A stretch of 64,000 nucleotides of DNA from Methanocorpusculum sp. (lineage in GTDB: Archaea > Halobacteriota > Methanomicrobia > Methanomicrobiales > Methanocorpusculaceae): assembly GCA_017408885.1 (NCBI GenBank), contig JAFQTT010000002.1, positions 1 through 64,000 of the forward strand, written 5' to 3'. The stretch's first letter is position 1. Every line of letters starts with the position of its first letter. This document shows, piece after piece, positions 3,048 to 54,166 of the stretch. The notes beneath the pieces are model-generated. The model was not told where the DNA came from. It ran no database searches and saw nothing but the letters and a program-made list of their open reading frames with translations. The position numbers were made by a program, and so were the translations under genes.

Positions 3048-6000
3048 TTAGTTGATTATCATATCGCGGTAGCTGTTCTTCTCTCGGCGCTCACCATAGT
3101 AATCTTCGCTGTATGTCTTCTTCGGCTCTGGCTTTTTCTCTTCCACTTCCGGAAGCGGGAAGTCCTCTTCAGTCTCTTCTGCTTCCAACATCAGGTTGTA
3201 GTAAGAGACAGCCTCCTCAAATCTTCCAAGACCTTCGAGAGCTTTTGCCTTCAGACGAAGAGCAGTTCTGTTTGATGGTCGGATTTTAATCGCTTCAGAG
3301 GCAGCCTTGTCACACATGTCAAAGCGGCTCTGCGAGAGGTAGATAAATGCCCTCGAGCAGTAGAGGTCAACGTCCTTACATCCGGCACTCTCTGCTTTAT
3401 CGAAGAATGAGAGTGCTTCTGTTGGGTGTCCAGATACTGCGTAGAGATAAGCAGTTCCGGCAAGTACGTATGGGTTTTTCGGGTTTACAGCCGCAGAGTC
3501 TTTGAGGGCCGAAAGAATTGCCTCATGGTTTCCGGTCTTCACCGCATTTGCCGCACGCTCAAGGTATGCACGCTCGTTTCTTGGGGCTGCGGAAATAACA
3601 CGGGCATAAGCAGTCTCAGCACGGGCGTAGTCACCGTTTCTTGAAAGAAGATCGGCGTAAGCAAGGAATGCTCCGGCATAATCTCCATTGTTCTTCAGAA
3701 TTGCTGCATACTCTTTCTGAGCTTCTTCGCTCTTTCCTGCATTTGCAAGAGCTTCGGCATAGAGCATGCGGATTCCAAAGTCCTCACCTGATTCAAGAAT
3801 CAATGCGCATACCTCTGCTGCCTCCTCGAACTCGCCTGATGCAAAGAGTGCTTCGGCCTTAAAGCGGAGAGTGAGCTTATCCTGCGGATTTCTTTCGAGA
3901 ATCATCTCGTAACCGTTCAAGGCAGCCTCAGTCTCTCCTCTCATGCGGTAAACTGCGGATGCCTTTCTAAACACTTCCATATTTTCAGTGTTGAGTTCAA
4001 GGTAGCGTCCGTATGTCTCAAGCATGGAGTCATACTCTCCTTTGCGCTCGAAAACATCAGCTAAGAGCAGAAGTGCTGCCTGGTTTTCAGAATCAACCTC
4101 GGTTAAGATGAGAAGAGTCTCTTCTGCTTCGTCAAGTTTTCCGAGATTGATTTCGCAGAGCGCTTTGTCATAGTAGTACTCAGGTTTTGCCGAAGCAGAT
4201 GCTGCACGCTTCAAAAGCGGGAGTGCCTCACGGAACTCACCCCTTAAAATCTGCACATGGGCAAGAGATGCTGAAGCAGAGATGTTCTCAGGCTCGATTT
4301 CGAGCGCCATTGTGTAGTACGAGACTGCTTCATCAATTCTGTCTGAGTTAAGACAGGCATCTCCCCCGAGGCAAAGAAGTGAGAAGCCTGCATCATTTTT
4401 CGAGACCGCGAAAGCGACAGCATCAGCAGCATCAGAGAATCTTCCAAGAGAGAAAGCAAGGCGGGCAACTTCGCCTGCGACCCCTAAAATCTCAGGGTTC
4501 TTTTCGAGAACATCCATGTAGATAGAAACAGCTTCATCTGTTCTTCCTGCCTCTGCAGCAGATTTTGCCTCAAGGATTCGAACACCGGATGCACCGCCAG
4601 CTAAGGCAAAGCTTTCCTTTGCTTCGTCTGCCTTTCCAAGCATTAACTGTGCTTTTCCAAGTCCAATCAACACAGCAGTGTTTTCAGGCTGTAATGCTGC
4701 TGCTTCTGAATAGTACTTCTCGGAATCAGCATAAGCTCCTGCGGCATAGGAGGCGTCTCCTGCTGCAAGAAGAGATATTAAGTCATTTGGAACATCTGAG
4801 AGCAGAAGGTCTGCTGCACGCTTTGCCTCCTCAAAGTCACCCAAGGCCACCGCGGCTTCAACCAGTCTTGAGTATACAAGGGTGTTTCCAGGGCATAAGG
4901 AAAGAAGTTTCTCCCATGTTTCTGCGGCTTTGGCAAACTCACCGGAAAGCATCTGAATCTCTGCATGTTCGAAGAGAATGGAGAAGTCATCAGGATTCTT
5001 TGCTGATACGCGTGCGAAAGCATCGGTTGCCTGACGGTATTTACCCTGACCTGTAAGACAGCGCAGACGAAGAAGCTCCATATCCGAGCGGGATGAGTCG
5101 CTGTCGAGAACAAGGCGTGCTGCTTTGTCAGCTTCGCTGTAGCGTCCAAGGGCGGCGAGTGATACAGCCTGCATGGAAAGAAGACCTGTGTTTGCGGTCT
5201 TGAACTCGACTTTGGCAGGCGATGCCTCCTGAGAGTTGAAGAGAATGTCTCCTTCATCAAACATTGATGACTTGAGAGCTGAAGTGCCACCGGTCATTCT
5301 TCCTGTCTTTTCGAAGCTTTCGACTGCTTCTTTGTACTTTCCAATGAGGAACTCGGCTGTACCTTTCATGTACCAGATAGAAGCAGGGGCAGATCCGATG
5401 CGGATTACTGTGTCAAACGCTTCAACTGCTCTTTTCAAAGAGCCGTTCATGAAGGATGCCGCACCAAGCAGATACCATAAGTCTGACTGGGAGTTGGATC
5501 TGGCGGTGAGTTTTTCGAGAAGGGATGCGGCATCTTTGCTGTTTCCGGAAAACATCAGGGAAAACGCACGGCGAAGTGAGACTGATAAGTCATCTGATGC
5601 AGTTTCCTGCTGTATCTTAGAGTAGGACTGTGCTGCTTCTTTGAACTCTCCTGCGGCTTCTTCGAGGCGTGCCTGACGGTAGCGGGCGACAATATCACTA
5701 TCTTCTGCCTGGCGGTAGCGGAAAAGAGCGCTCTGTGTGTCTCCCATTAATTCACAGCAGAGACCGGCATCTGCCGCATATTTGTTTTCGCTTCTTAAGA
5801 GTTCGTCATAGATTTCCTTTGCTTCGCTGTATCTTCCGGCACGAAGGAGGAGGTCTGCTAATCTTACGCGGTATGTTTTGCTCGACGGGTTTGCAGAACA
5901 AAGCTTCTTTGCGGCCTCTGCGGCCTCGGTGTAGCGGCCAAGTCTTTCGAGCCATTCGCATTTTCTCTCATGCAGGCTTACTTCGTTTTCCGGGACAGCA

Positions 6001-8965: not shown

Positions 8966-11767
8966 ATGACAGAAAATCTCGTAATGAGCGAAATCGAACC
9001 TGCAATCCGCGAAAACTGGATTCCGCAGTTTGAATCAAACCCGAACCCGGAAAAAGACAAGCTGTACGTAAACGTAGCATTCCCGTACCCGTCTGGTGCA
9101 ATGCACGTCGGACACGGAAGAACCTACATCATCCCGGATGTCGTTGCCCGCTTCTGGAGAATGAGAGGAAAGCAGGTCCTCTTCCCAATGGCATTCCACG
9201 TCACCGGAGCACCGGTTCTTGGAATTGCAAAGCGTATCGCAAACAAAGATGAAAAGACCTTAAAGCTCTACGGAGGACTCTACCGTGTCCCGGCAGAAAC
9301 CTTAGAGAAGTTCACTGACCCGATTACAATCGTCAACTACTTCGCAGACGAATATCAGCGCGTCATGCAGCAGCTCGGTCTTTCCATCGACTGGAGACGC
9401 AGATTCACCACAATCATCCCGCAGTACAGCAAATTCATCGAATGGCAGTACACCCACATCCACGGACAGGGCAAAGTCCAGAAAGGCGAGTACCCGGTCA
9501 GATACTGCCCGCACTGTGATCAGCCGGTCGGAGACCACGACCTCCTTGAAGGCGACAGCGCAGAAGTCATGCACTTCGTCTTTGTCATGTACGAGTTCGG
9601 CGAGTACAAGATCCCGTGCGCAACACTCCGCCCTGAGACCATCTTCGGTGTCACCAACCTCTGGGCAAACCCGGAGACCAACTACCTCAAAGCAGAAGTC
9701 GACGGACAGAAGTGGATCATCTCCGAGGAAGCTGCAGAGAAGCTTCGCATGCAGAAGCACACCGTCACCGAGCTTGGCAGAATCATGGGAACCGAGCTCA
9801 TCGACCAGAACGCTGTAAACCCGTACACCGGAGCAGCCGTCCCAATCCTTCCGGCATCATTCGTCGACTCTGACATGGGTTCAGGACTTGTCATGTCCGT
9901 TCCGGCCCACGCACCGTTCGACTACATTGCACTCCGCGACTTACAGCAGCAGGGCAAATACACTGACATCGTCCCAATCCCGCTCGTCACCGTCCCGAAC
10001 TATGGAAAGATTCCGGCTCAGGACATCGTCGAGAAGAACAAGATTCCAAACCAGGACGACCCGAGAATGGACGAGCTCACCCAGGAGCTCTACACTGCTG
10101 AGTTCTCCAAGGGCAAGCTCAACGAAAACTGCGGAGAACACGCAGGAAAGTCCGTCCGCCAGGCAAGAGAGGACGTCACCAAAGAGTTCGTCGAGAGCCG
10201 CGGATCTATCATGTTCCACGAGATGAGCCAGAAGCGTGTCATCTGCCGCTGCGGAAACCGTGTCTATGTCAGAATCTTAGACGACCAGTGGTTCATCAAC
10301 TACGGTGACGCCGAGTGGAAGAAGGCAGTTCACGAGGAACTCCCGAACTTAGAGCTCGTTCCGGCAGAGGTCAGAGCAGAGTTCGAGAGAACCACCGACT
10401 GGCTCCGCGAGTGGCCGTGCTCCCGCCGTGTCGGTCTTGGAACCCATGTCCCGTGGGATCCAAAGTGGCTCTTTGAACCGCTCTCCGACTCCACCATCTA
10501 CATGGCATACTACACCATCTCTCACAAGATTGAGAAGATTGATGCAGAAAAGCTTGTTCCGGAAGTCTTTGACTACATCTTCCTTGGAAAAGGAGACGCA
10601 GCAAACCTGCCGGTTGACGAGGCAACCTTAAAGGACCTCAGAGCTGAGTTCCTCTACTGGTACCCGTACGACTACCGCTTCAGTGCAAAGGACTTAATCT
10701 CCAACCACTTAACCTTCCAGCTCTTCCACCACAAGGCAATCTTCCCGGCAGAGCTTCAGCCGAAGGGAATGGTCGTCTTCGGTATGGGTCTCTTAAACGG
10801 TATGAAGATGTCATCCTCCAAAGGAAACGTCTTCCTGTTAGAGGATGCAGCAAACGAGTTTGGAGCAGACACTGTCCGTATGTTCTTAGTCGGCTCTGCT
10901 GAACCGTGGCAGGACTTCGACTGGAGAAACGAGCTTGTCTTATCCGTCAAGAAGCAGATTGAGCGTATGTGGCAGCTTGTCCTCGACGCAGAGTCCGCAG
11001 AAGGCGAGACTCCGATTGACGCATGGCTTGTCTCCCGCATGCAGCAGAGAATTGCAGCAGCCACCAAATGCCTTACCGCATTCCAGACCAGACAGGCACT
11101 TCAGGAGGCATACAACGGTGTTGTATCCGATCTTGCATGGTACCGCAAGCGCTTAGCCGGAGCACAGCAGGGAGCAGTCGTTAAAGACGTCATGTCCCAG
11201 TGGATCCGCTTAATGGCTCCGGTCATCCCGTACACCACAGAAGAGCTCTGGAAGAAGACCGGACGCGACGCAAACGGTCTCGTCTCCTTTGCAGAATGGC
11301 CGGTTGCAGACGAATCCAAGATCAACAAGGCAGTCGAAGTCTCTGAAGAACTTCTCCAGAGAACCGTTGAAGACATCCAGTCAATCTTAAAGCTCGTCCA
11401 GATTGAGGCAAAGAAGGTCACTCTCTGCATCGCACCGGAGTGGAAGAAGGAAGTCTTCAAGATTGTTGCAGGCGCAGAAGACAAGCGCAATGTGGTCAAG
11501 ACCGTCATGGCAAACGAAGCACTCCGTGCAAAGGGCAAGGAAGCAACTGATGCTGCACAGCAGACCGTAAAGCTTGTCCACTCCCTTGCACCGGAACTCG
11601 TCTCCGCAATTGCTGAAGGCGTTGACGAAGAAGCAGTCTTTACCGCTGCAAAAGAGTTCATCGAGAAAGAGACCGGACTTACCGTCGAAGTTGTCGCAGC
11701 AGAGACCTCCGGACACGCAAAGGCAAAGTCCGCATTACCATTCAAGCCGGCAATTGTTGTCGAGTAA
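8966..11767 (+). CDS. leuS: Leucyl-tRNA synthetase
   Basis: A class Ia aminoacyl-tRNA synthetase of 933 residues, the usual archaeal length. The HIGH-type motif is HVGH at 47-50 within [15 protein letters not shown], and the KMSKS loop is KMSSSKGN at 614-621. Between them lies the CP1 editing insertion with a zinc-type CPHC motif. After the KMSKS loop come the anticodon-binding helical domain and the archaeal C-terminal extension. The ATG at 8966 is preceded by an AGGAAA stretch. The gene follows the PIN-ATPase-KH gene closely. A tRNA-Leu(UAA) gene lies about 7 kb away, at 18.8 kb. Confidence 0.97.
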
Positions 11768-11792
11768 GAATCCTTTAAGGATTCCTTTTTTT
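11768..11792 (+). terminator. Hairpin terminator of leuS
   Basis: A perfect hairpin (GAATCCT, loop TTA, AGGATTC) starts immediately after the leuS stop codon and is followed by a run of seven to eight T. It is one of the clearest intrinsic-like terminators in the window. Confidence 0.65.
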
Positions 11793-11802
11793 AAAAAAGA
11801 AT

Positions 11803-12480
11803 TTACTGAAGGATATTCCCGTCAGTAGATATAGTCACAACACGAAGCGGAATCTCTTTTCCGCTTGCATCAAGAGCTCTTCGCACCGCATTTTCAAGTC
11901 CTCCGCAGCATGGAACAGACATTCTTGCAACAGTCACAGAGCGGATATCGTTTTTAGAAAAGATACTCTCAAGCTTTTCTGCATAATCAATACCGTCAAG
12001 CTTCGGACACCCGATTATAGTAACCCTGCCTTTGATAAACTCAGCATGGAAGTTTCCATAGGCAAATGCAGTACAGTCTGCGGCAACAAGCAAATCAGCA
12101 CCCGCAAAGTACGGAGCAGCAGCAGGAACCAGTTTAATCTGAACCGGCCACTGGGAAAGCTCACTTGGAGCAGAAACTCTGCCCTCAGTTCTCTCCCGCT
12201 GAATCATCTTCGCCTGCATACCAGGACAGCCATGTGTGTGAGATGCCTTCTTTGCCGCAAGAACTGCTGAGGCATTGTACTTTGGGGCATCTCTTTCTTC
12301 AAAAGATATTGCATCCTCCGGACACGCCGGAAGACAGTCGCCTAAGCCGTCACAGAAGTCTTCTCTAAGAAGCTTTGCCTTATTATTCACCATACCAATT
12401 GCCCCTTCATGACATGCCGCAGCACAAAGACCGCAGCCCGTGCACTTCTCCTCATCTATTTTGATTATTTTCCGAAGCAT
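11803..12480 (-). CDS. Ferredoxin-domain iron-sulfur protein
   Basis: A 225-residue protein. Residues 10-60 form a bacterial-type 2[4Fe-4S] domain: CTGCGLCAAAC binds the first cluster and a CDGLGDCLPACP block provides the second. The remaining 160 residues have conserved-looking cysteines, including CPKLDG and a VPCCGG pair. Such ferredoxin-plus-C-terminal-domain proteins are common in strict anaerobes and methanogens and probably pass electrons to an unknown partner. A strong TATA-like box (minus strand, 12501-12512) lies about 26 bases before the ATG at 12480, so the transcript is probably leaderless. No partner gene is adjacent. Confidence 0.75.
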   Translation of the reverse strand: MLRKIIKIDEEKCTGCGLCAAACHEGAIGMVNNKAKLLREDFCDGLGDCLPACPEDAISFEERDAPKYNASAVLAAKKASHTHGCPGMQAKMIQRERTEGRVSAPSELSQWPVQIKLVPAAAPYFAGADLLVAADCTAFAYGNFHAEFIKGRVTIIGCPKLDGIDYAEKLESIFSKNDIRSVTVARMSVPCCGGLENAVRRALDASGKEIPLRVVTISTDGNILQ

Positions 12481-12500
12481 GATTCATCTATACATTTTTC

Positions 12501-12512
12501 TATATTTATAAA
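12501..12512 (-). promoter_or_regulatory. TATA-like box of the ferredoxin-domain gene
   Basis: tttataaatata on the minus strand is centred about 26 bases before the ATG at 12480. This is the spacing expected for a leaderless transcript. Confidence 0.55.
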
Positions 12513-12513
12513 C

Positions 12514-13032
12514 CTACTCTTCAAGGACAAAACGCCATTTACAGCTGCATGTATCATCTGTTACATCTGGAAAACAGCTAATGCACTCGCAGGTAAAACG
12601 CGGGTCGATGGTTTTTGCAAATCCTTCGTACTCCACAAATCCCACAGACTTGCATGGATGAAACGGCATCCCTTTTTCTTTTCTTGCAGACTGTACTCTG
12701 CATGTTTTAACAGTACAGGTCACTGTATTTCCATCAACTTCTACGATATTCTCATTTACACTTGCATTGAATCTAAGAAGAAGAGCCTTTTTAAGTCCCT
12801 CAACTCCTGCAAACTCCAAAAGTCCAAGGAACTTCTTAAGCCGCCTTGCTTCGGTTACTGTATACCGCTTCCATGCCTCGGCATCATGAAACATCGCATC
12901 ATCCATACCGCATGTGCGTTCCACTGACTGGAACCACACACCATCCAATGCTAAGAAGTTTTTAGAGTGGATGTCGATTAATTCAATAAGCTCCTCCTTT
13001 GATAACTTGGAGAGAACATCGTAATTATACAT
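12514..13032 (-). CDS. DUF6125-like cysteine-rich protein
   Basis: A 172-residue soluble protein with an alpha-helical first half (EELIELIDIHSKNFLALDG, WFQSVERTCGMDDAM) and a second half rich in cysteines (CTVKTCRVQ, CECISCFPD, CSCKW near the end). The layout recalls DUF6125 / L-2-amino-thiazoline-4-carboxylate hydrolase-like proteins found in anaerobes. This is a family resemblance from memory, and no substrate can be inferred. It lies 33 bases upstream of the ferredoxin-domain gene on the same strand, but that gene has its own TATA box. No clear TATA box is seen before its own ATG. Confidence 0.6.
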   Translation of the reverse strand: MYNYDVLSKLSKEELIELIDIHSKNFLALDGVWFQSVERTCGMDDAMFHDAEAWKRYTVTEARRLKKFLGLLEFAGVEGLKKALLLRFNASVNENIVEVDGNTVTCTVKTCRVQSARKEKGMPFHPCKSVGFVEYEGFAKTIDPRFTCECISCFPDVTDDTCSCKWRFVLEE

Positions 13033-19197: not shown

Positions 19198-19256
19198 GGG
19201 GTGCGGAGCCGCGACTTCGGCGCGGAGCGGCTCGCGGTGGAGATATCTTCTGCAGG
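19198..19256 (+). repeat. GC-rich palindromic repeat, copy A
   Basis: GTGCGGAGCCGCGACTTCGG followed by CGCGGAGCGGCTCGCGGTGG forms a hairpin with a seven-base-pair core stem GAGCCGC/GCGGCTC and a C(TTCG)G loop element, then GAGATATCTTCTGCAGG. Copies B (22582-22645, inverted) and C (51774-51830) are close relatives. Relative to C, two positions in each arm differ and pairing is kept. The copy lies upstream of mcrB. Confidence 0.8.
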
Positions 19257-22581: not shown

Positions 22582-22645
22582 GCAGAAGATATCCCCACCG
22601 CGGGCGGCTCCGCGCCGGAGTCGCCGCCCCGCACCCCTATTTTCC
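22582..22645 (-). repeat. GC-rich palindromic repeat, copy B (inverted)
   Basis: On the minus strand this reads GGAAAATAGGGGTGCGGGGC, then the core hairpin GGGCGGC...GCCGCCC, and ends GCGGTGGGGATATCTTCTGC. It is nearly identical to copy C over the core and shares the GATATCTTCTGCA end with copy A. It lies just after mcrC, inverted relative to copy A. Confidence 0.8.
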
Positions 22646-51612: not shown

Positions 51613-51928
51613 GATTTGTTGAATTGTCTGCAAAAGTCATCAGCACCATATATTTTAAACCGCAGACCACACAGACGTGCCTTCTGCACAGCGACCAGTC
51701 GTTCTCGCTCGTAAACTCGCGAGCAACTACCGCAGAGACTTTGTGGTTGCTAAAAGAGATGAGCAAATCTTATTTCTAAAATAGGGGTGCGGGGCGGCGA
51801 CTTCGGCGCGGAGCCGCCCGCGGTGGAAACATCCTATTTTGTTTTCAAAAAGGATAGAACTTTTTGAAATTTAAAATATCCGGAATTGTCTTTTTAAAAA
51901 TATGGTGATGGTAAAATACCCAACCTGG
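51613..51928. other. Intergenic island edge with repeat copy C
   Basis: The 355 bases between alaS and the zinc finger-SPFH gene hold the alaS terminator, a CTCGC/GCGAG hairpin near 51697-51725, palindromic repeat copy C at 51774-51830 and an AT-rich stretch after it. The base composition changes from mixed to AT-rich here. No coding frame is supported. Confidence 0.5.
51774..51830 (+). repeat. GC-rich palindromic repeat, copy C
   Basis: TAAAATAGGGGTGCGGGGCG continues as GCGACTTCGGCGCGGAGCCG and ends CCCGCGGTGG. The stem is GGGCGGC/GCCGCCC around a C(TTCG)G loop element. Relative to copy A, stem positions change in complementary pairs. It lies at the 3' side of the AT-rich SPFH gene. Confidence 0.8.
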
Positions 51929-54100
51929 TTAATGCATCCCACACATCTCTGAGAATGCATCATTTAAAACACAAATCATCTCACCAGAATACTCACCATA
52001 GAGTTCAGACATCATTGATTCAAAAGCCGTACAATCTTCGTCCATGAAATTCTTTAATTGTGTTAAACTTTCAAAATTGCACTTTGAAGCCAATATGTTT
52101 CCTGCAATAAGTGAGTTCTTTCCGCTGATAGAAATGATATCATCAGGAGTTACTAGAATTGCTCTTCTAACCAATTCTTTACTGACAATTTCTCTAACAC
52201 TACTATTTTCACTATTCATCAAAGACATAAGCGCAGGTTGAATTGGAAGATCCATTGGATTATGTAACACCATTCTCTCCATTTCAGATTGGAAATTCCC
52301 AGATGGATAGGACTGTTCGAAGTAAAAACGCTCTTTTGAAAGATGTGATTTGCGAGCATACTCTGAAGCAAGAGCGCGTTTGTATTCATCACTCTCAAAT
52401 TCTTCTTTACCTCTCTCCGTATTAGGGGTGACGTTGGGTTTCTCTGCTATAGACGATTCTAAATTTGATTCATGATTGAAATCAGCCAATTCACTTTCAA
52501 AATCATGAGGACGAATATTAGGAAGACCAAATTTAAATTCTGCAGAAAAAGTGGCAACCAATCCATGAGAATTAAGTAAATCATTTAGGTAATTCTTCAA
52601 ACTATCCTTAACAATAGAATCAAGATATGAATATCTCTCAAACTCATATTCCTCATATCGACGGAAAATATCGTTTGCACATTTTCCAAATATTGAAAGG
52701 ATGTCAGTGAAAATTATCTCCACGGTTGTTTCTGAGACATCATTCAGATAATGAGAACTAAATCTAACACCATCTTTAATTGAGAAGGATAGATTCCCAG
52801 AGACAGTTACCTCAATGTCATCCTTAGTCTTAATATTCTCTGAGATTACAAATGGCAAGTAGATAAATGTAGTTCCAACAACGAGAATCGATGTATAATT
52901 ATCCAATATCTGATTATTTTTATTCAATGAGTTATTAAAAGATGACAGAGATTTATAGCTCCTAGGCTTAAATGTTGTTTTAAGAGTTGATTTAAGAACT
53001 CCATTCTGGATAAAGAAAACATTCAGACTAGCAGGCACTTTAAACCCACTTTCGAATAATGCCTGGAGATTCTCAAAGTCATATTTCTGAGCATAGAGCC
53101 CCTGTTTAAGTTCAAATGTAATGGGCTCAACTGATTGAGATTTGGTAGGAAGATGAGGTTCAAAACTAGGAATAGTTTTGTCTAATTGAGAAATAATGAC
53201 ATCTTCTTCATTTAGGAAACTATTATGAGACACTGAAAATGATTCCAAGCTGAAATCGGACGATTCACTTTCAAAATCATGAGCGCTAACATTGGGAAGA
53301 CTAACCTTAAAATCAACAGTGAATGTGATTACATTTAATCCATGAACATTAAGACAATCATTTAGATAATCCTTCAAATTATCCTTAATGACAGAATGAA
53401 GATATGAATAATTCTCAAATTCTTGCTCATCATATCGAGCAAATGTATCTACAGCACATTTTTCCAGAATTGAGAGTACATCAGTAGAGATTATATCCAC
53501 TTTTGTCTCAGGAATATCACTAAGATAATGAGAGCCAAATCTCACAGCGTCATTAATTGAGAGAGACAGATTCCCAGTGATATCCACCCCAACACCATCT
53601 TTAGTTTTAACACTGATTTCCGGGATTGCAAACGGCAAGGAGATAAATGTAGTATCAGTGATGATGATTGTAGTATAATCATCCAGAATAAGTTTATTTT
53701 TGCCCGATGAATCGTTTACAGATGACAGGGATTTGTAACTCCCAGGTCTGAGAGTTATTTTAGGAATGCCATTCTGGATAAAGAAAACTTTCAAACCAGA
53801 GGGTATCTTAAACCCTCTTTCAAACAATCCTTGAAGATTCTCAAAATCATGCCTCTGAGCATAAAGTCCATATTTAAGATTTAATGTGATGGGAGTTGCT
53901 GGTTGAGATATAACAGAAAGAGATGATTCTATATTGGGTGTTGTCGTCTGATGTTCAGAGGGTAGATACTCTTTGTTTTCCGGAGAACATTTATGAAATA
54001 GTCTGCATTTGAAACACAGAATTTGACCGCATGTTTGACATTTCTTTAATTTTGACTTTGGAAATTTTTTCCCGCATTTATCACACAAAATCAAATCCAT
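51929..54100 (-). CDS. AN1-like zinc finger plus two SPFH-like domains, AT-rich orphan gene
   Basis: A 723-residue protein that I cannot name. Residues 6-38 have C6-x2-C9-x11-C21-x2-C24-x4-C29-x2-C32-x3-H36-x-C38, an AN1-like cross-brace zinc finger. Residues 71-288 and 327-543 are two related copies of about 215 residues (both with GLYAQ..DFENLQ.LFE.GFK, VFFIQNG and SYKSLSS). Each resembles an SPFH/band 7 domain: a beta sandwich with TKDG.....GNLS.SI.D..RF, then helices. The last 145 residues are helical. No membrane segment is visible. GGAGGGG shortly before the ATG at 54100 decides the start; a TATA-like box is at 54158-54166. Much more AT-rich than its neighbours, it looks acquired. Confidence 0.7.
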   Translation of the reverse strand: MDLILCDKCGKKFPKSKLKKCQTCGQILCFKCRLFHKCSPENKEYLPSEHQTTTPNIESSLSVISQPATPITLNLKYGLYAQRHDFENLQGLFERGFKIPSGLKVFFIQNGIPKITLRPGSYKSLSSVNDSSGKNKLILDDYTTIIITDTTFISLPFAIPEISVKTKDGVGVDITGNLSLSINDAVRFGSHYLSDIPETKVDIISTDVLSILEKCAVDTFARYDEQEFENYSYLHSVIKDNLKDYLNDCLNVHGLNVITFTVDFKVSLPNVSAHDFESESSDFSLESFSVSHNSFLNEEDVIISQLDKTIPSFEPHLPTKSQSVEPITFELKQGLYAQKYDFENLQALFESGFKVPASLNVFFIQNGVLKSTLKTTFKPRSYKSLSSFNNSLNKNNQILDNYTSILVVGTTFIYLPFVISENIKTKDDIEVTVSGNLSFSIKDGVRFSSHYLNDVSETTVEIIFTDILSIFGKCANDIFRRYEEYEFERYSYLDSIVKDSLKNYLNDLLNSHGLVATFSAEFKFGLPNIRPHDFESELADFNHESNLESSIAEKPNVTPNTERGKEEFESDEYKRALASEYARKSHLSKERFYFEQSYPSGNFQSEMERMVLHNPMDLPIQPALMSLMNSENSSVREIVSKELVRRAILVTPDDIISISGKNSLIAGNILASKCNFESLTQLKNFMDEDCTAFESMMSELYGEYSGEMICVLNDAFSEMCGMH

Positions 54101-54166
54101 ATTAGATGCCCCTCCAAAAGACAGATGGTGATTCAGTATAGTTAATACATCACTCATCATTATAAA
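54101..54166 (-). promoter_or_regulatory. Promoter, leader and Shine-Dalgarno of the zinc finger-SPFH gene
   Basis: On the minus strand tttataatg (54158-54166) is followed, about 60 bases later, by TTGGAGGGG and then the ATG at 54100. The predicted transcript starts near 54140. The strong ribosome binding site differs from the leaderless style of many neighbours and rules out the two upstream ATGs as main starts. Confidence 0.55.

What the first reader, a model, noticed from the sequence alone, without database searches (positions are those of the whole stretch)
51929..54166. AN1-like zinc finger fused to two SPFH-like domains in an AT-rich acquired gene
The 723-residue protein combines an eight-ligand cross-brace zinc finger (residues 6-38) with two internally duplicated SPFH/band 7-like units (71-288 and 327-543) and a helical tail. 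I know of no described protein with this order. SPFH proteins build membrane-associated rings or cages, and AN1 fingers bind ubiquitin-like proteins or act in protein quality control. The gene is far more AT-rich than alaS and lig on either side, uses a strong Shine-Dalgarno, and adjoins palindrome copy C. It is a good candidate for an undescribed defence or membrane-stress factor.
Basis: partly seen in the sequence, partly recalled or inferred. Interest (0 to 1): 0.75.

Follow-up and report, generated by a model that had tools for sequence, protein, structure and literature searches.

The report
Orphan double-SPFH zinc-finger protein, methanogen
A methane-making archaeon carries an inserted gene for an unusual membrane-scaffold-type protein: a doubled, rebuilt relative of a protein that elsewhere sits in ESCRT-type (membrane-remodelling) gene clusters, here found alone and with a different zinc finger at its front.

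Summary
The gene is real, on the minus strand (51929-54100, 723 codons from the ATG behind GGAGGGG). Both repeats are SPFH/Band_7 domains: Pfam above cut-off (unit 1), profile matches for both, AlphaFold models matching stomatin/prohibitin for both. The repeats are 62% identical, with constraint kept after duplication (dN/dS about 0.25). The 'helical tail' is a conserved domain. Closest relatives are zinc-ribbon/SPFH/coiled-coil proteins of related methanogens; in 5 of 5 such loci read they follow two coiled-coil genes and lie near a CdvC/Vps4-like AAA ATPase gene, i.e. an ESCRT-type locus (ESCRT-III itself only inferred). The window protein keeps the layout but has another zinc module, a doubled SPFH, a shortened linker and no C-terminal ribbon. 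Its genome (90.5% complete) shows no ESCRT-III-like, Vps4-like or PspA gene. The alaS-lig spacer lacks the gene in three relatives and holds DpnI-type cargo in a fourth: an insertion site. The finger belongs to an eight-ligand family found in several proteins of the genus; AN1 membership is not met. No direct defence evidence. No ortholog among 232 class genomes searched (own included). Verdict: new variant of a known kind.

The parts
51929..54100 (-). coding sequence, 723 codons from the preferred ATG (the first ATG, at 54158-54160, would give 743)
   Evidence: ORF; start chosen by the Shine-Dalgarno read directly
54109..54115 (-). GGAGGGG Shine-Dalgarno, 8 nt before the ATG
   Evidence: sequence
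53987..54085 (-). eight-ligand zinc finger C-x2-C-x11-C-x2-C-x4-C-x2-C-x3-H-x-C (residues 26-58), of a finger family found in several proteins of the genus
53261..53890 (-). SPFH unit 1 (residues 91-300)
   Evidence: Pfam Band_7 27.4 bits vs cut-off 23.6; profile A1 77.7 bits; AlphaFold, Foldseek, VIA-align
52466..53125 (-). SPFH unit 2 (residues 346-565)
   Evidence: profile A1 46.3 bits, E 1.7e-12; AlphaFold and Foldseek
52226..52465 (-). low-confidence linker (residues 566-645) where the relatives have a longer coiled-coil-like region
51938..52225 (-). conserved C-terminal helical domain (residues 646-741) shared with the SPFH proteins of the ESCRT-type loci
   Evidence: profile A1 47.4 bits, E 9.3e-13; phmmer of residues 607-743
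51778..51840 (.). palindromic dispersed repeat on the 3' side of the gene (12 places in this genome)

Best explanation
Shown: the gene encodes an orphan, rebuilt relative of a zinc-module/SPFH/C-terminal-domain protein family whose ordinary members sit in ESCRT-type loci (two coiled-coil genes, CdvC/Vps4-like ATPase) of methanogens of this order, and it lies as an insertion between alaS and lig in one Methanocorpusculum genome. Inferred: like YdjI, the SPFH protein needed to bring the ESCRT-III relative PspA to the membrane in Bacillus, the ordinary members position ESCRT-III-like polymers at the membrane. In the window protein the SPFH unit was duplicated in one chain, much of the coiled coil (which builds the wall of SPFH cages) and the C-terminal ribbon are missing, and the front zinc module is a finger used in several other proteins of the genus. 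Most likely, in my view, it forms a flat SPFH ring or patch at the inner face of the membrane, without a tall cage wall, and uses the zinc finger to bind a client (a membrane-stress or quality-control adaptor), independently of ESCRT-III in this host. Ring, membrane, client and independence are all inferred.
For: SPFH by Pfam, profile and predicted structure. Best relatives of unit 1, unit 2 and tail among the 11 proteins compared are the Methanocorpusculum proteins L005 and L007; the host's own two other SPFH proteins score at or below noise. Loci of the relatives: two coiled-coil genes and an AAA ATPase gene in 5 of 5 read; ATPase best NCBIfam model CdvC, E 2.5e-56, below its cut-off and almost tied with CDC48, E 6.3e-56. 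Beside one relative (G010) lies a gene with the same finger family. dN/dS between units 0.27 (NG86) or 0.24 (YN00). Own genome: no ESCRT-III-like gene (best E 0.09), no Vps4-like match at E 1e-50, no PspA. Papers: YdjI needed for PspA at the membrane (PMC8581546, abstract and passages); SPFH with coiled coil and zinc ribbon in archaeal ESCRT loci (PMC10936438, passages and part 1 of 2 of section 5).
Against: No functional evidence. Identity to the relatives is 17-27% over the SPFH parts and 24-35% over the tail. The coiled-coil family matches CdvB only at E 0.026 and no ESCRT model in Pfam or NCBIfam, so ESCRT-III is inferred from the locus. The own genome is 90.5% complete, so an ESCRT locus could lie in the gap. 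No clear membrane span: the highest 19-residue hydropathy mean is 1.65, about the usual limit of 1.6 (recalled), at residue 425 within SPFH unit 2. The finger's partner is unknown.
Confidence: 0.45

Rival explanations
1. It still works with an ESCRT-III/Vps4 set, encoded in the tenth of the genome that is missing or supplied by a mobile element.
For: Ordinary relatives lie in such loci; the own genome is 90.5% complete.
Against: The ESCRT-III-like gene is found in only 2 of 25 genus genomes, both of which hold an ordinary SPFH gene of the family, and not in the own genome.
Confidence: 0.18
2. Stand-alone defence or anti-mobile-element factor.
For: Inserted, AT-rich, sporadic; the same slot holds a DpnI-type gene in G007; the ATPase of a relative's locus matches PADLOC IetA models (E 2.7e-33) besides CdvC and CDC48.
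Against: No PADLOC match for the protein itself; alaS and lig as neighbours; no match of P0001 in the phage, plasmid or viral collections at the limits used; the IetA match is to a general AAA domain.
Confidence: 0.12
3. A relic on its way out, or cargo without a function for the host.
For: Orphan among 232 class genomes, divergent, partners not found; unit 2 matches L005 less well than unit 1 (33 vs 63 bits).
Against: Open over 723 codons, eight ligands kept, dN/dS between units about 0.25, good Shine-Dalgarno.
Confidence: 0.15
4. Assembly chimera.
For: The genome is a 13-contig draft and no reads could be checked.
Against: On both sides the window's spacer aligns to the spacers of G002 and G007, up to about 51.6 kb and from about 54.19 kb; the gene lies inside a 71-kb contig.
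Confidence: 0.04

Closest known systems
SPFH proteins with coiled coil and zinc ribbon in archaeal ESCRT loci (reported for Meth_adaptin systems of Methanobacteriales, PMC10936438); here the Methanocorpusculum, Methanocalculus and Methanogenium proteins of L005, L007, L006, L011, L066
   Same: N-terminal zinc module, SPFH, C-terminal helical domain; their profile matches both units and the tail
   Different: single SPFH, double zinc ribbon instead of this finger, longer coiled-coil region, C-terminal ribbon, locus with coiled-coil genes and an AAA ATPase. That these are the same family as the paper's SPFH proteins was not tested by sequence
YdjI of Bacillus subtilis (PMC8581546)
   Same: SPFH protein, likely soluble, tied to an ESCRT-III-type polymer (PspA)
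   Different: YdjI's own sequence was not compared here; the host's SPFH protein with C-terminal ribbons (L105), which looks closer to YdjI in layout (recalled), does not match the window units
Stomatin, prohibitin, erlin, flotillin, HflK/C and vault SPFH domains
   Different: prohibitin and erlin have one SPFH1-SPFH2 pair per chain followed by coiled coils (passages of PMC12624060); here two whole units in one chain
Pfam FYVE and zf-AN1 fingers
   Same: eight ligands in cross-brace-like spacing; FYVE models pass their cut-off on two multi-finger proteins of the genus (L010 44.5, L002 31.2 vs 27.8 bits)
   Different: the window finger is below the FYVE cut-off (17.1 bits as a single finger) and has no AN1 hit; the AN1 pattern (recalled) has H where all 14 fingers found have C

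Membership tests
SPFH / Band_7 | Pfam Band_7 above curated cut-off | tested here: met
   27.4 bits vs 23.6 for the whole protein, best stretch in unit 1; in the six-frame genome search 23.1 bits, just below
SPFH / Band_7 | SPFH fold in both units | tested here: met
   Foldseek best E 5.6e-9 (unit 1) and 4.1e-7 (unit 2), probability 1.00; the 50 rows shown for each are SPFH-family or vault proteins. VIA-align was run for unit 1 alone
zinc-ribbon SPFH family of ESCRT-type loci | profile similarity of SPFH and C-terminal domain | tested here: met
   E 4.2e-22 (unit 1), 1.7e-12 (unit 2), 9.3e-13 (tail) with profile A1; phmmer best to L005 and L007
zinc-ribbon SPFH family of ESCRT-type loci | N-terminal double zinc ribbon and C-terminal zinc ribbon | tested here: not met
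   another finger at the front, no ribbon at the end; three relatives tested have the ribbons
zinc-ribbon SPFH family of ESCRT-type loci | gene beside coiled-coil genes and a Vps4-like ATPase | tested here: not met
   neighbours are alaS and lig; no such genes found in the own genome, 90.5% complete
AN1 zinc finger | zf-AN1 model above cut-off | tested here: not met
   no hit for P0001 at E up to 10; 0 of 25 genus genomes over cut-off
FYVE zinc finger | Pfam FYVE above cut-off | tested here: not met
   P0001 15.6 bits, its finger alone 17.1, vs 27.8; two multi-finger relatives pass it
known anti-phage defence protein | PADLOC model match | tested here: not met
   0 families at E up to 10
membrane-bound SPFH ring | oligomer on a membrane | not testable with these tools
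   needs protein work

The most novel reading that the evidence does not exclude
A pre-dimerised SPFH scaffold: an SPFH protein of an ESCRT-type locus left its locus, was duplicated inside one chain, lost most of the cage wall and took a new zinc adaptor, becoming a self-sufficient, horizontally moving membrane-patch factor in an archaeon without ESCRT-III, Vps4 or PspA.
Probability: 0.25. Interest if true: 0.65.

Novelty: new variant of a known kind. Interest (0 to 1): 0.42.

Why it matters
SPFH proteins and ESCRT-III-type polymers are linked in bacteria and in archaeal ESCRT loci (PMC8581546, PMC10936438), and how separable the link is remains open. A natural SPFH protein that seems to have left its ESCRT-type locus and fused two SPFH units in one chain would be a simple test case for ring stoichiometry and for what SPFH proteins do without ESCRT-III. 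It also ties a finger family of this genus to the same loci: the finger gene lies beside the SPFH gene in one genome and is fused to SPFH in another.

Tried and rejected
AN1 label: rejected. FYVE label for the window finger: below cut-off; the PDB profile search of the finger (111 sequences at E up to 1, best 60 shown) returns mixed C2H2, FYVE, RING and ribbon rows and does not decide. Phage, plasmid and viral origin: no match for P0001, nor for the relatives' alignment in the viral collection; near records of the own genome may be left out there. Close relatives of P0001 in genome contigs: none. PspA partner: 0 of 25 genus genomes, control 9 of 14. Coiled-coil genes as ESCRT-III: CdvB only at E 0.026, no ESCRT model for the L005 pair. 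NCBIfam TssE (E 0.012) and PHROG hits (best E 0.0093) for P0001: weak, ignored. Literature: no held paper has both 'AN1 zinc finger' and 'SPFH'; the tandem-SPFH search listed 2 papers, of which I opened one (PMC12624060, passages): there 'tandem' means the SPFH1 and SPFH2 subdomains. 'Methanocorpusculum' with 'zinc finger' listed 3 papers, none opened. PMC9239133 was seen in passages only. Other searches.

Full report
What is there. The better start is the ATG at 54100, 8 nt behind GGAGGGG, giving 723 residues; the first ATG gives 743. The host genus is Methanocorpusculum: G020, of the same genus, has the contig of M. parvum XII (same length and sequence match).

Duplication. The units share 62% aa and 73% nt identity; dN/dS is 0.22/0.83 (NG86) or 0.23/0.97 (YN00) over 220 codons. 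Unit 1 is nearer to L005 than unit 2 (63 vs 33 bits).

Relatives. With P0001, 9 of 61 genomes had a match at E 1e-3 and 10 of 232 class genomes at E 1e-4, the own one included in both. The matches fall into two sorts: SPFH proteins with double zinc ribbon, one SPFH, coiled-coil region, C-terminal domain and ribbon (6 genomes: G010, G020, G025, G032, G033, G115), and finger proteins (for example G002, G022, G024). No second protein with this finger and two SPFH units appears. With profile A1, 26 of 392 phylum genomes match (own included), and the own one alone has more than one match. A genome-contig scan with A1 gave 7 loci: two Methanocorpusculum, two Methanocalculus, one Methanogenium, and two in records labelled as bacterial bins (93% identical to the M. 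parvum protein, and a 98-residue fragment 99% identical).

Locus of the relatives. In 5 of 5 loci read (L059, L060, L061, L062, L063: two Methanocorpusculum, two Methanocalculus, one of another family of the order) the SPFH gene follows two coiled-coil-like genes of 183-204 codons, and divergently from these lie a gene of 181-192 codons and one of 385-401 codons. The latter is an AAA ATPase in the three tested (Pfam AAA E 1.5e-36 to 4.6e-36; Vps4_C below cut-off in two of three); in the other two I go by the similar N-terminus. For the one tested NCBIfam's best model is CdvC (E 2.5e-56, below cut-off), almost tied with CDC48 (E 6.3e-56), and PADLOC gives IetA (E 2.7e-33). The first coiled-coil family hits CdvB in PDB only at E 0.026. 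I therefore call it an ESCRT-type locus, with ESCRT-III inferred. PMC10936438 (passages; part 1 of 2 of section 5) reports SPFH proteins with coiled coil and zinc ribbon in ESCRT loci of Methanobacteriales and places Methanomicrobiales in its main Vps4 clade. PMC8581546 (abstract and passages) shows that YdjI is needed for PspA at the membrane.

What differs in the window protein. Aligned with the relatives: the N-terminal zinc module is another finger; the SPFH is doubled; the coiled-coil region is reduced to an 80-residue low-confidence linker; the C-terminal ribbon is absent. The own genome has two other SPFH proteins (C3, C6), which do not match the window units, and no match for the ESCRT-III-like gene (best E 0.09), the Vps4-like gene at E 1e-50 or PspA. 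The genome is 90.5% complete, so these absences are not final. In the genus the ESCRT-III-like gene is in 2 of 25 genomes and the Vps4-like gene in 4 of 25; several of these genomes are incomplete.

The finger. Fourteen distinct fingers in the window and the loci held share the 33-residue pattern C-x2-C-x11-C-x2-C-x4-C-x2-C-x3-H-x-C; the search pattern would have allowed other spacings and H at the sixth ligand, but most of the loci with fingers had been fetched for their likeness to P0001. They occur singly or in tandem in proteins with other parts. AN1 and FYVE models are not met by the window finger; FYVE is met by two multi-finger proteins. In G010 such a gene lies directly after the SPFH gene.

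Insertion. The ligase gene was found in 24 of 25 genus genomes, own included; I fetched its surroundings in 13 of the 23 others. alaS and lig lie together in 4 of 13, with spacers (stop codon included) of 195 nt (G002), 33 nt (G006), 16 nt (G024) and 3.7 kb (G007); in the other 9 no alaS was found within the stretch fetched. In G007 the slot holds a DpnI-type gene (Pfam DpnI E 1.4e-70) between two PDDEXK_3-type genes in opposite orientation (one tested in Pfam, the other 59% identical to it). Homology of the window's spacer to G002 and G007 ends near 51.6 kb and resumes near 54.19 kb. The gene's GC is 0.346, its parts 0.32-0.41. Three of four finger genes measured are about as AT-rich (0.34-0.36), the fourth is not (0.535), and four of four ordinary SPFH genes measured are not (0.45-0.47), so composition alone does not prove foreign origin. 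The palindrome is a dispersed repeat.

Mechanism. Shown are family, architecture, duplication under constraint, insertion, and that no partner genes were found. Inferred are ring or patch formation at the membrane, loss of the cage wall, client binding by the finger, and independence of ESCRT-III. Defence is possible, with only the slot's other cargo and the IetA likeness of a relative's ATPase leaning that way.

Noticed in passing
L046:3674-7423 (G007) and L060:3439-12903 (G010): A DpnI-type gene in one, the ESCRT-type locus in the other, lies between two GxxExxY (name recalled; Pfam PDDEXK_3) genes in opposite orientation, as if such pairs flank mobile cargo.
   Followed up: partly
window 51778-51840, 22595-22643, 19198-19247: Palindromic dispersed repeat, 12 places in the own genome; also on the 3' side of the other finger gene (G000:C13).
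   Followed up: partly
L002:928-1677 and L012:1432-1752: Another finger gene of this genome, AT-rich, lies near a Lon-type protease gene (name from recall), as does a finger gene of G002.
   Followed up: no
L070 and L075: Contigs in records labelled Bacilli and Acholeplasmataceae hold genes 93% and (fragment) 99% identical at protein level to the M. parvum SPFH gene: probably misbinned archaeal contigs.
   Followed up: no
L020:214-1626: Finger protein with a hydrophobic segment after the finger and a long further part, equally AT-rich.
   Followed up: no
L059, L060 (ATPase genes 4042-5223 and 11442-12596): The AAA ATPase of the ESCRT-type locus matches CdvC and CDC48 and also the anti-phage IetA models (L060 copy), so the relatives' locus itself might be worth a defence test.
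   Followed up: no
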